This document shows positions 42,741 through 46,510 of a stretch of 64,000 nucleotides of DNA, one piece after another. Location: assembly GCF_001570525.1 (NCBI RefSeq), contig NZ_BBXC01000008.1:585841-649840 (forward strand). Direction: 5' to 3'. The stretch comes from Herbidospora sakaeratensis. GTDB taxonomy: Bacteria; Actinomycetota; Actinomycetes; Streptosporangiales; Streptosporangiaceae. Made by a program: the position numbers and the translations under genes. Under the pieces are notes generated by a model that saw nothing but the letters and a program-made list of their open reading frames with translations, made no database searches and was not told where the DNA came from. The stretch's first letter is position 1. Each line of letters begins with the position of its first letter.

Positions 42741-42812
42741 GGGCGGTTAGCTCAGCGGTAGAGCACTCGCCTTACAAGCGAGGGGTCACTGGTTCGAACC
42801 CAGTACCGCCCA
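42741..42812 (+). tRNA. tRNA-Val (anticodon TAC)
   Basis: The cloverleaf is complete: acceptor GGGCGGT/ACCGCCC with discriminator A, D-arm with AGCTCAGCGGTAGAGC, anticodon stem CTCGC/GCGAG with loop CTTACAA (TAC at 42773-42775), and T-loop GGTTCGAACCC. CCA is not encoded. Its 3' end is duplicated at 43664-43680. Confidence 0.97.
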
Positions 42813-42813
42813 C
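42797..42813 (+). repeat. Candidate attachment site in the tRNA-Val 3' end
   Basis: The 17-bp sequence AACCCAGTACCGCCCAC at the tRNA 3' end recurs with one mismatch 867 bp downstream next to an integrase pseudogene. tRNA 3' ends are classic integration targets. Confidence 0.65.
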
Positions 42814-42817
42814 TTTG

Positions 42818-42857
42818 AGCCTCTTACCTGCGGAAACGGGTGAGGGGCTTTCGTTTT
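42818..42857 (+). terminator. Terminator of tRNA-Val
   Basis: AGCCTCTTACC (42818-42828) pairs, with a few G-U pairs, to GGTGAGGGGCT (42839-42849), and TTCGTTTT follows. It begins 6 bp after the tRNA. Confidence 0.75.
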
Positions 42858-43257
42858 CAGCCGAGCTGCACAGCTCAGCGAGCCCTCGCCTTCGAACTCT
42901 TCCGAGCCGATCTGGGGTCTGCTGTGGCCGCGCACGTTCGCGGACGCCACGATGGCGGCCAGGCCCATGACGCCAGCACTGCACGACCGGCCTCCCCGAG
43001 ACGGGCGAACGTGGTGCTCCACCACTGCGGTCACGACTATCTCGGCGTGCAGTGCGGGATCGCATAGAGGTCAGGGTTCGCGCGACTCCGGTCTCCGGAA
43101 ACGCCCACGAAAAAGGGCATCCTGTCAACGACGTGGCGCCTTTTACGTCTGTGACCTGCGTCTGCATTGGGGCTCAAGCGCCCACCAAGTCGCGTGGAAG
43201 TGATCCCCAAGGGCCCCCCTGTCTACTGAGATCCGTCAACAACGACACCTCGACAAC
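42858..43257. other. Gene-poor stretch between tRNA-Val and the secreted-peptide gene
   Basis: About 400 bp with no frame that I can support on either strand. It holds the promoter and leader of the small gene at 43269, but no clear -35/-10 pair stands out. It lies between the two tRNA-derived repeats, so it is probably part of an integrated segment. Confidence 0.5.
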
Positions 43258-43268
43258 AGGAGATCCCC

Positions 43269-43421
43269 ATGCGCACGCTCAAGCGCGCCGCCGCCCTCGC
43301 CGCCACCGCCGCCGTCACCATCACCACCTTCGCCGTCCTCGCGGCCCCCGCCAACGCCCAGCGCGGCGAGTGGTACCCCTGCACGATCGACGGCAAGCCC
43401 ATGTGGTGCATGGACGTCTAA
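43269..43421 (+). CDS. Secreted mini-peptide precursor, 50 aa with a 20-aa two-cysteine core
   Basis: The frame encodes a 30-residue signal peptide (positive MRTLKR, hydrophobic alanine/valine core, cleavage after APANA) and a 20-residue mature peptide, QRGEWYPCTIDGKPMWCMDV. The two cysteines are eight residues apart and can form one disulfide. An AGGAG ribosome-binding site (43258-43262) precedes the ATG by 6 bp, and a canonical terminator follows at 43494. This complete set of expression signals argues for a real gene, although nothing known to me matches the product. It is flanked by tRNA-Val and an integrase remnant, so it may be element cargo. Confidence 0.75.
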   Translation: MRTLKRAAALAATAAVTITTFAVLAAPANAQRGEWYPCTIDGKPMWCMDV

Positions 43422-43493
43422 ACGGCCGAGCCTCCGGCGATCCGGGCGAACCCGCGTTTCGCCACGTGAACCGATTGTCGGTCAGCTGCAGAC

Positions 43494-43536
43494 ACGAGCC
43501 CCCGTCCCAACTCGCTTGGGTCGGGGCTCGTTTTTT
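43494..43536 (+). terminator. Rho-independent terminator after the secreted-peptide gene
   Basis: ACGAGCCCC (43494-43502) pairs with GGGGCTCGT (43523-43531), and an inner CCCAA/TTGGG helix extends the stem. Six T residues follow (43531-43536). It is the most classical intrinsic terminator in the window. Confidence 0.93.
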
Positions 43537-43663
43537 GTACTCTGCCGCGACCAGGGAGCTCCCGCGAATCGCGGGGAGTTCGATGCGAGGCCGGCCAGCC
43601 GGCGTCCGCACAAGAGCAGGGGAACCATGCCTCGCTCGAAGGCTTCACTCAAGATGGTCGAAG

Positions 43664-43680
43664 AACCCAGTACCGTCCAC
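43664..43680 (+). repeat. Second copy of the tRNA-Val 3' end (att-like)
   Basis: AACCCAGTACCGTCCAC matches the tRNA-Val 3' end in 16 of 17 positions. It lies about 50 bp beyond the 3' end of a decayed tyrosine integrase gene, the normal place for an attachment site. Confidence 0.65.
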
Positions 43681-44168: not shown

Positions 44169-45560
44169 CTAGTGCTTCTTGTCCTTGTAGGACGGCTGCG
44201 TCTGCGCGTTGAAGTCGTTCATCTTCACGCTGTTGGCCTGGTTCGTACGGGGGTCGTTGATCTTGAGCACATCGAAGCCCCGGGTGAACTCGGAGCCGTA
44301 GATGTAACCGTTGTAGTAGTAGGCCGACCAGTAACCGTCACCGAGGTTCTCACCGGGACCGCGCTCGAAGTAGCCGATCTCGTGCGGGTTGGCGGAGTCG
44401 GTGAAGTCCCAGATCGAGACGCCTCCCTGGTACCAGGCCTGGACCATGATGTCGCGGCCCTTGACCGGGATCAGCGAGCCGTTGTGGGCCACGCAGTTCT
44501 CGGTGTCGGCCTGGTGGCGGGCGATCTTGTAGTAGCTGCGGAAGGTCATCTGACCGTCCGCGATGTCGAAGATGGCGTTCGCACCGCGGTTCGGTCCGAT
44601 CGCCTCGTTGCAGGTGGCGGCGCTGCCGCCGCCCAGCTCGTCGGTGAAGATGACCTTGTCGCCCTCGTTGTTGAACGTGGCGGAGTGCCAGAAGGCGAAG
44701 TTCTCGTCGTCACGAACGACGTCGAGAACGGCGGGGGCCTCCGGGTTGCGGATGTCCAGCAGGATGCCCTCGCCCATGCACGCGCCCGCCGCGACGCCCT
44801 TCTCCGGGTACGCGGTGATGTCGTGGCAGCCGCTGGTGGCCGACGTGCGGAAGGGGTAGGGGAGGCTCTCGCCCGGGTTGCCACCGTCCGGGAACAGGTT
44901 CGGCGTGGCGACGACCGAGGCGGCGGCCGGGTCCTTCAGCGGCACCTTGACGATCGAGATCAGGTCATGGGGCGGCTGGCAGTCCGGGAACGACGCCGAC
45001 GGGCTGTAGGAGGAGATGTACAGGTAGACGCTCGCCTTGTCCGTGCCGGGGACGAGCGTGTGGGTGTGCGAACCGCAGTTGGTCTCGATCGACTTGACGT
45101 AGCGCGGGTTGGCCTTGTCGCTGATGTCGAAGACCCGGATGCCCTCCCACGACGACTTGATCGCGGCCGACTGGGCCACGCTGGTGCAGGAGTCGTCGCT
45201 GCGGGAGGAGTCGACGGAACCGAACAGCAGGTTGCCGTAGACGGAGATGTCCATCTGCGACCCGGGACACAGCACCGAGCTGACCAGCTTCGGCTTCTTC
45301 GGGTGCTTGATGTCGTAGACGGAGAAGCCGCCGTAGTTGCCGACGTAGGCATAGTCGCCCTGGAAGGCGATGTCGGTGTTGATGGTGGTGAGCAGGGAGT
45401 CGGGCCGCGGCAGGTTCGCGACGTGCTGGACGTTGTCGCTCATGTCGATGGCGCCGGGGGGCAGGATGTCAGCGGCCTGAGCCGGTGTCGTGGAGAGCGC
45501 CAGCGCTCCGGCGGCACCGAGCACGGCGAGTAAACGCCCAACTCTGCGGAGGGGGGACAT
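44169..45560 (-). CDS. Secreted LVIVD-repeat beta-propeller protein
   Basis: The 463-residue precursor has a signal peptide ending near STTPAQA and then LVIVD-type blades such as FSVYDIKHPKKPKLVSSV, IRVFDISDKANPRYVKSI and VSIWDFTDSANPHEIGYF. Several cysteines (VLCPGS, DDSCTS, TNCGSH, FPDCQ) suggest disulfides in the exported protein. ATG 45560 has GGAGG 8 bp upstream. It faces a DUF305 lipoprotein gene across a shared promoter region; the pair may act together at the cell surface. Function is unknown. Confidence 0.88.
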   Translation of the reverse strand: MSPLRRVGRLLAVLGAAGALALSTTPAQAADILPPGAIDMSDNVQHVANLPRPDSLLTTINTDIAFQGDYAYVGNYGGFSVYDIKHPKKPKLVSSVLCPGSQMDISVYGNLLFGSVDSSRSDDSCTSVAQSAAIKSSWEGIRVFDISDKANPRYVKSIETNCGSHTHTLVPGTDKASVYLYISSYSPSASFPDCQPPHDLISIVKVPLKDPAAASVVATPNLFPDGGNPGESLPYPFRTSATSGCHDITAYPEKGVAAGACMGEGILLDIRNPEAPAVLDVVRDDENFAFWHSATFNNEGDKVIFTDELGGGSAATCNEAIGPNRGANAIFDIADGQMTFRSYYKIARHQADTENCVAHNGSLIPVKGRDIMVQAWYQGGVSIWDFTDSANPHEIGYFERGPGENLGDGYWSAYYYNGYIYGSEFTRGFDVLKINDPRTNQANSVKMNDFNAQTQPSYKDKKH

Positions 45561-45633
45561 TGAGGGAACCTCCGGGTAAAAGGTGGCAAACACCCCTTAT
45601 GGTTTCTTTACTCAGGCCCTCAAGCAAGTCGTC

Positions 45634-45648
45634 AATATGTCACATATT
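45634..45648. promoter_or_regulatory. AT-rich palindrome between the LVIVD and DUF305 genes
   Basis: AATATGT-C-ACATATT is a perfect 15-bp inverted repeat in the divergent intergenic region (45561-45787). Its AT content is striking in this genome, which marks it as a probable operator for a regulator encoded elsewhere. Confidence 0.5.
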
Positions 45649-45787
45649 TCCTACGATCCGTCTCCTTTACTGTCACAAGCCCAGGCCATTAGGTTCCTCA
45701 GGAGGACCGAAATGGGGACGGGTGCGCGCATCTCCCCCCATCATGACCAGGCACAATCGCTCCGCGACCACAGCCGAAAGGACCGAA

Positions 45788-46510
45788 ATGCGCAGAGCTC
45801 CCGCCGTCATCACGAGCCGCGTTCCCGCCCCGAGCGCCGAGCCCCATGTGCTCAGAACCCTCCCGCTCCGCCAGGCCGGGACCACCGCGGTCAAAGCTCT
45901 CCTGAGCATCGCGGCGGCCACTCTGCTCTTGACCGCCTGCTCGTCTCCCACCGACCCGCCCGAGGTCATCACCGACGCCCCGGTCATCGTCCCCGGCAAA
46001 CCGGGCGAGGTCGCCGCCACCCTCACCCCCGGCCAGACCTTCGCCCCCCTGCCCTCCCCCACGATCAACGCCACCGACGTCCGCTACGTCCAGGACATGA
46101 TCGTGCACCACCGCCAAGCCCTCGAAATGGCCGCGCTGGCCCCCGACCGCGCCCAATCCCCCCGCCTGAAGTCCCTGGCCGACCGCATCTACGACGCCCA
46201 GGGCCCCGAGATCAATGCCATGACCACCTGGCTCGAAGAAGAGGGTCTGCGCGAACCCGACCACCACGCCGACCACGCCACGATGCCCGGCATGGCCACC
46301 CCCGCCCAGCTCACCGACCTCCGCAACGCCAAGGGGGAATCCTTCGACACCCTCTTCCTCACCCTGATGATCGCCCACCACAAGGGCGCCATCACCATGG
46401 CCGAAACCCAATTGATCAACGGCTCCCACGACCGCGTCCTCACCTGGGCCCAGGACGTCGTCGCCGAGCAAAGCGCCGAAATCACCCGCCTCCAACGCCT
46501 ACTCGGCTAG
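45788..46510 (+). CDS. DUF305 lipoprotein
   Basis: This 240-residue protein has a lipobox LLLTACSS about 53 residues from the chosen start and a ferritin-like DUF305 domain with two HH motifs, DMIVHHRQALEMA and MIAHHKGAITMAE. These histidines, together with the HHADHATMPGMAT segment, suggest metal binding outside the membrane. The ATG is chosen for its AAAGGA site; GTG 45848 would give a shorter and more typical signal sequence. Confidence 0.88.
   Translation: MRRAPAVITSRVPAPSAEPHVLRTLPLRQAGTTAVKALLSIAAATLLLTACSSPTDPPEVITDAPVIVPGKPGEVAATLTPGQTFAPLPSPTINATDVRYVQDMIVHHRQALEMAALAPDRAQSPRLKSLADRIYDAQGPEINAMTTWLEEEGLREPDHHADHATMPGMATPAQLTDLRNAKGESFDTLFLTLMIAHHKGAITMAETQLINGSHDRVLTWAQDVVAEQSAEITRLQRLLG

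What the first reader, a model, noticed from the sequence alone, without database searches (positions are those of the whole stretch)
43269..43421. Secreted 20-residue disulfide-type peptide with full expression signals
A 50-codon gene has an AGGAG site, a clean signal peptide, a mature QRGEWYPCTIDGKPMWCMDV and a strong terminator. It is far shorter than usual annotation limits. Size, paired cysteines and aromatic/charged core suit a signalling peptide, bacteriocin or inhibitor, and it lies in a tRNA-linked mobile segment.
Basis: seen in the sequence. Interest (0 to 1): 0.72.

Follow-up and report, generated by a model that had tools for sequence, protein, structure and literature searches.

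The report
Secreted mini-peptide with antibiotic-type operator
A tiny, so far unnamed gene family in Herbidospora and related soil bacteria encodes exported peptides of about 20-26 residues with two cysteines, each behind a DNA repeat of the kind that antibiotic-regulating activators bind, which suggests an overlooked class of ribosomally made bioactive peptides.

Summary
The 50-codon gene at 43269-43421 is real: 44 matches in 43 of 345 genomes of its order, all in one taxonomic family. In the 43 members read, a signal peptide precedes a C-terminal core WYxC-x8/9/12-C-x-D. AlphaFold models the core as a beta-hairpin, with modest confidence.

Upstream lie (C)CAAG direct repeats with an 11-bp period (lag-11 count 38 against a shuffle mean of 2.2). 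That is the layout of SARP operators; PimR binds CGGCAAG repeats with 4-bp spacers. Promoter profiles find weaker copies beside SARP-LAL genes and before peptide genes with PCAT exporters, lanthipeptide synthetases and a graspetide-type pair, among other genes without such links.

The tRNA-linked segment is confirmed: 42814-43680 follows tRNA-Val and ends in an 18-bp copy of the tRNA 3' end; a sister species has the unoccupied site.

Best reading: a stand-alone, SARP-type-controlled, exported disulfide-hairpin peptide acting outside the cell, more likely antagonist or inhibitor than pheromone. Expression, export, disulfide, regulator and activity are untested.

The parts
42741..42813 (+). tRNA-Val (tac); its last 18 bases (42796-42813) are the left copy of the direct repeat
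42814..43680 (.). 867-bp inserted segment carrying the peptide gene; absent from the matching site of Herbidospora G003
   Evidence: no Pfam match (E <= 0.01) for five ORFs of 96-224 aa overlapping it
43175..43211 (+). four units at 11-bp steps: CAAG 43175, CAAG 43186, GAAG 43197, CAAG 43208; proposed SARP-type operator
   Evidence: sequence
43222..43227 (+). TCTACT, proposed -10 hexamer, 10 nt after the last AAG
   Evidence: pattern TNNNNT in 39 of 43 members
43258..43262 (+). AGGAG ribosome-binding site
43269..43421 (+). 50-codon gene with stop: signal peptide 43269-43358, predicted mature peptide 43359-43418
43494..43537 (+). intrinsic terminator (stem-loop plus T-run)
43663..43680 (+). right copy of the tRNA-Val 3' end repeat (17 of 18 identical), attR-like

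Best explanation
A stand-alone gene for an exported ribosomal peptide. Inferred order of events: a SARP-type activator (BTAD protein) binds the 11-bp-phased CAAG repeats beside the -10 element and recruits RNA polymerase; the precursor is exported by its signal peptide and cut after AxA; outside the cell the two cysteines close a 20-26-residue beta-hairpin rich in W, Y, M and D. The peptide then acts outside the cell as part of the programme that also switches on RiPP genes, most likely as an antagonist or inhibitor of other cells or their enzymes. Shown by sequence: the family, the conserved signal and core, the phased repeats, their recurrence beside SARP and RiPP genes, the tRNA-bounded segment. 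Inferred: SARP binding, export, disulfide, activity.
For: Family with intact frames; AxA signal and core conserved. AAG lag-11 count 38 in 41 promoters against shuffle mean 2.18, max 6 of 300; CAAG 29 against 0.28, max 4; CTT 0. SARP operators are heptameric repeats in 11-bp units, CGGCAAG for PimR, same consensus for SanG and PolR (passages). Six profile hits lie within about 460 bp of, or overlap the end of, a SARP-LAL gene. Other hits precede GG-leader peptides beside C39 ABC exporters, RamC-type synthetases, a GG-leader peptide with a TIGR04187-like ATP-grasp, and TIGR04500-like genes. Hairpin model.
Against: No expression, binding or activity data. The SARP-LAL beside one operator does not track the peptide: counterparts of 52% identity or more in 14 of 25 carriers and 7 of 13 non-carriers; Microbispora has only about 42% relatives. 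Many weaker profile hits have no RiPP or secreted link, and only 42 of 149 non-family hits were inspected. No shared immunity, receptor or enzyme gene beside the peptide, which is unusual for a bacteriocin. OmpR-type response regulators also use 11-bp direct repeats (recalled). Structure confidence is modest (pTM 0.34).
Confidence: 0.55

Rival explanations
1. A peptide pheromone: secreted by the producer and sensed by kin to coordinate specialised metabolism or development.
For: Small, exported, stand-alone, with an elaborate conserved promoter; the same operator type stands beside regulators.
Against: No receptor or sensor gene shared by the 20 neighbourhoods compared; patchy within genera (3 of 7 Herbidospora); core positions vary in Microbispora (core dN/dS 0.81).
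Confidence: 0.2
2. A cell-surface or spore-envelope microprotein of aerial growth, functionally like SapB or chaplins.
For: Found only in a family of sporulating, sporangium-forming actinomycetes (lifestyle recalled); in G208 a RamC-type synthetase lies within 4 kb.
Against: Present in 43 of 345 genomes only and absent from 4 of 7 Herbidospora; mobile; no chaplin or rodlin match beyond E 0.12.
Confidence: 0.13
3. A precursor modified in trans by unlinked RiPP enzymes under the same operator (for example the TIGR04500-like protein), then exported.
For: The own genome has a TIGR04500-like gene behind a similar operator (169.9 bits, cut-off 180); a TIGR04500 partner is needed for rosaritide (passages of PMC13097080).
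Against: Sec-type signal instead of a RiPP leader; no modifying enzyme shared among neighbours; operators before TIGR04500-like genes were seen only in Herbidospora among the hits inspected.
Confidence: 0.1
4. A chance ORF, or a leader/attenuator peptide without a function of its own.
For: Only 50 codons, in an intergenic insert.
Against: Frame and core kept in 44 matches over 9 genus groups; promoter and start conserved with it; a terminator follows at once.
Confidence: 0.02

Closest known systems
SARP and SARP-LAL operators (PimR, SanG, PolR)
   Same: CAAG-ending direct repeats in 11-bp units, two to four per promoter
   Different: Consensus here is (C)CAAG, not CGGCAAG; repeats abut the -10, whereas PimR's lie farther upstream; the target is a lone secreted peptide gene; binding untested
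Sec-dependent bacteriocins without modification (recalled)
   Same: Signal peptide, short mature peptide, two cysteines
   Different: No immunity gene seen beside it; no sequence match to a curated family; activity unknown
tRNA-integrated genomic islands
   Same: Insert starts at the tRNA 3' end, direct repeat at the far end, unoccupied site in a sister species
   Different: Only 867 bp and no recognisable integrase: a remnant or a cassette moved in trans
Graspetide systems of the rosaritide type (TIGR04187 synthetase, TIGR04500 partner, TIGR03796 PCAT; PMC13097080, passages)
   Same: Relatives of all three components occur singly behind this operator type in different genomes, all below NCBIfam cut-offs
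   Different: The window peptide has a Sec-type signal and none of these genes beside it

Membership tests
SARP-regulated promoter | Direct repeats in 11-bp units next to the promoter | tested here: met
SARP-regulated promoter | Repeat sequence like a known SARP heptamer | tested here: inconclusive
   CAAG shared with CGGCAAG; the preceding bases differ
SARP-regulated promoter | Binding and activation by a SARP protein | not testable with these tools
   needs EMSA or footprinting; adjacency of related operators to SARP-LAL genes only
Sec-exported bacteriocin | Signal peptide with AxA site | tested here: met
   by eye on the alignment of 43 members; helix 2-25 in the model
Sec-exported bacteriocin | Immunity gene beside the structural gene | tested here: not met
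   no neighbour shared by all 20 loci compared, crude gene calls
Sec-exported bacteriocin | Antimicrobial activity | not testable with these tools
   none
RiPP precursor | Leader peptide and a modifying enzyme nearby | tested here: not met
   Sec-type signal; no shared enzyme among neighbours; one of 20 loci (G208) has a RamC-type enzyme
tRNA-integrated element | Direct repeat of the tRNA 3' end and an unoccupied site in a relative | tested here: met
tRNA-integrated element | Integrase gene | tested here: not met
   no Pfam match for five overlapping ORFs
Curated protein families (Pfam, NCBIfam, PHROGs) | Score above the curated cut-off or a convincing E-value | tested here: not met
   best DUF3551 E 0.0069, 16.9 bits against 26.5; NCBIfam none for the window peptide; PHROG 3892 E 0.02; no PDB sequence match

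The most novel reading that the evidence does not exclude
Bacteria of this family share a SARP-read CAAG/11-bp operator that wires unlinked exported and modified peptides into one ribosomal-peptide regulon. The window gene is its most strongly marked target: a promoter-gene-terminator cassette that moves, in part through tRNA att sites, and plugs into the resident SARP network on arrival, delivering a new class of enzyme-free, Sec-exported antagonistic hairpin peptides.
Probability: 0.35. Interest if true: 0.78.

Novelty: new variant of a known kind. Interest (0 to 1): 0.62.

Why it matters
Genome miners find ribosomal peptides by their enzymes and skip ORFs of about 50 codons, so enzyme-free exported peptides are hard to see. 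This family becomes visible through its operator. If the operator is SARP-read, it gives a sequence handle for listing ribosomal peptides in Nonomuraea, Microbispora and relatives, and a simple synthetic 20-mer to test.

Tried and rejected
Single-query back-translation in genome contigs found no relatives; a DNA pattern then gave 23 hits: 22 are members and L070 (Actinomadura) I judge a chance match, no signal and not C-terminal. Weak full-length-profile hits outside the family in 394 class genomes mainly cover the signal peptide. A mature-only profile gave 12 of 396 phylum genomes at E <= 0.05, only the own genome convincing (7.1e-11; next 0.011). Plasmid and phage tblastn: no match. First own-genome operator pattern: 0 hits, because the third unit here is GAAG. 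Pattern TCCAAG-N5-TCCAAG: 8 hits in 6 genomes, 4 of them family promoters, against 4 for the reversed control: no enrichment by itself. First dN/dS script misaligned indels; one search replaces it. One alignment row was out of frame, mended by the right coordinates. In one search AAG also has a smaller peak at lag 9 (14). The signal/GG enrichment (17 of 31 hits with a downstream ORF against 121 of 470 control genes, Fisher p 8.5e-4) counts orthologues apart, uses a lax predictor (118 of 470 controls positive), drops 6 of 37 hits without an ORF and has false positives. An ECF sigma -35 was rejected on spacing, by eye. A terminator test on L009 used a badly placed stretch (z -2.3).

Full report
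Observation. The ORF 43269-43421 codes for MRTLKRAAALAATAAVTITTFAVLAAPANAQRGEWYPCTIDGKPMWCMDV. AGGAG stands 6 nt before ATG; a stem-loop with T-run follows (z -4.58). The genome is probably a Herbidospora: genus-mate G005 contig C12 has the length of a named H. solisilvae contig with the same gene. Other genus names here rest on the same kind of contig-length match; g49 (G208) and g58 (G313) are unnamed.

Family. A profile search of the order gave 44 matches at E <= 2.7e-12 in 43 of 345 genomes (9 genus groups); the next is 3.5e-5, and such matches mainly cover the signal peptide. Reading 43 (L118, at a contig end, was dropped) shows signal, AxA, then WYxC-x8/9/12-C-x-D at or near the C terminus. 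By eye W is kept in 42 of 43, the next Y in 41, D in 41, both Cys in 43; the collecting regex demanded the two Cys, though the profile found the members without it. Outside the family nothing convincing appeared in the class sample (394 genomes) or the phylum sample with a mature-only profile (396); both include the own genome. Clade dN/dS: whole gene 0.47, 0.39, 0.26, 0.52; mature core 0.81, 0.60, 0.25, 0.58. So the gene is under purifying selection, weakest in the Microbispora core. AlphaFold on 20 rows: helix 2-25, strands 36-40 and 43-47, mean pLDDT 75, pTM 0.34.

Promoter. Upstream lie sense-strand (C)CAAG repeats with an 11-bp period. In 41 non-redundant promoters AAG pairs at lag 11 number 38, against a shuffle mean of 2.18 (max 6 of 300), with peaks at 22 (28) and 33 (17), a lesser one at 9 (14), and none for CTT. 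The window has units at 43175, 43186, 43197 (GAAG) and 43208, then TCTACT at 43222. When each promoter is put in its best register, 43 of 43 hold at least two near-CAAG units, 39 of 43 TNNNNT ten nt after the last AAG, and 13 of 43 an ATG 7 nt after that hexamer, which predicts leaderless mRNA. The register chooser rewarded CAAG and those T's, so these counts lean upwards; one search is the unbiased test. This is SARP layout: PimR protects three CGGCAAG heptamers with 4-bp spacers, SanG and PolR share the consensus, and 11 bp is the classical unit (passages: PMC5930380, PMC3367932, PMC10972967). PimR's sites, unlike those of other SARPs, do not overlap the -35.

Regulon. Sequence-only profiles from 18 and 17 family promoters were run on 14 and 12 genomes. 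Family promoters come first: 37-52 bits in the 10 carriers for R1 (three of them, G005, G073 and G077, not in training) and 27-41 bits for 13 promoters for R2 (all in training). Of 172 matches at E <= 10, 149 are not family promoters; I inspected 42 of these (37, five own-genome sites). They include GG-leader peptides beside C39 ABC exporters in Herbidospora G004 and G001 and Sphaerisporangium G221 (for G004 and G221 TIGR03796 at 614.8 and 564.9 bits, cut-off 853.3); RamC_N-kinase proteins in Nonomuraea G151 and Sphaerisporangium G216; a GG-leader peptide followed by an ATP-grasp maturase-like ORF in Nonomuraea G143 (TIGR04187 E 1.8e-75, below cut-off); TIGR04500-like genes in six of seven Herbidospora (profile tested for G000 only); and secreted proteins of about 136 aa in Herbidospora, with like proteins in Nonomuraea. 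Many of these hits are weak singly (E 5e-4 to about 1 per genome). Others have no such link: acetyltransferases, a response regulator, hits without an ORF.

Link to SARP genes. Six of the 149 lie within about 460 bp of a SARP-LAL gene or overlap its end: G000:C15, G001:C6, G005:C21 and G008:C53 (one orthologous place; an MMPL gene follows in G000 and G008), G221:C1:6374473 and G079:C58. They are at most three independent cases. Counterparts of that SARP-LAL with 52% identity or more exist in 21 of 38 genomes: 14 of 25 peptide carriers and 7 of 13 non-carriers. So it does not track the peptide and is not its regulator everywhere. The regulator is unknown.

Mobility. Segment 42814-43680 is bounded by the tRNA-Val 3' end and an 18-bp copy (17 of 18); Herbidospora G003 has the plain site. 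G005 has the gene at the same tRNA with extra DNA including a DDE-endonuclease ORF. In G001 a block matching 42995-43617 (91.5%) sits in unrelated surroundings with no tRNA in the 19.9-kb stretch. In Nonomuraea G172 the gene is 1.7 kb downstream of the same tRNA-Val; in G208 it is 345 bp before tRNA-Thr. Two Acrocarpospora, Planotetraspora and three Microbispora share one locus. So the cassette has moved, sometimes at tRNAs.

Function. No neighbour is shared by all 20 loci compared (crude gene calls). The unit is promoter, gene and terminator. From the operator's company I infer an extracellular bioactive peptide of the specialised-metabolism programme, antagonist or inhibitor first, pheromone second. 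This last step rests on co-regulation and shape only.

Novelty. Seven paper searches were seen as listings, plus passages of five papers. None listed describes this peptide family or this operator in Streptosporangiaceae. The library lacks most subscription papers, so this is weak evidence of absence.

Noticed in passing
L190:9978-12346 and L191:7538-10148 (Herbidospora G004, G001): GG-leader peptides with W/Y/D-rich 21-residue tails (two in tandem in G004) beside a C39 peptidase ABC exporter; no modifying enzyme recognised nearby.
   Followed up: partly
L188:1241-1399 (-) and the following ORF (Nonomuraea G143): GG-leader peptide followed by a TIGR04187-like ATP-grasp peptide maturase, a likely graspetide pair.
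   Followed up: partly
L234:1408-6967 (own genome G000:C15): SARP-LAL gene, operator with three CAAG units at 11-bp steps, then an MMPL transporter; a hemerythrin-like ORF diverges upstream. Similar order in Acrocarpospora L196.
   Followed up: partly
L218, L149, L143, L154, L155 (Herbidospora), L183, L173, L175 (Nonomuraea): Secreted proteins of about 133-144 aa behind CAAG repeats; no Pfam match for the two tested.
   Followed up: partly
L208, L210, L211 (Herbidospora G001, G002): Second partial copies of the tRNA-Val 3' end near the site; in G001 it lies about 25 kb away in opposite orientation beside the LVIVD gene, which suggests rearrangement at this hotspot.
   Followed up: no
window 44169-45593 (-): Secreted 474-aa LVIVD / choice-of-anchor-B-like protein beside the segment.
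   Followed up: no
L111:9966-13781 (G208): Family member, tRNA-Thr, a 78-aa ORF, then a RamC-type lanthipeptide synthetase within 4 kb.
   Followed up: partly
window 45485-46510 (+): DUF305-containing protein (E 1.1e-47) next to the LVIVD gene.
   Followed up: no
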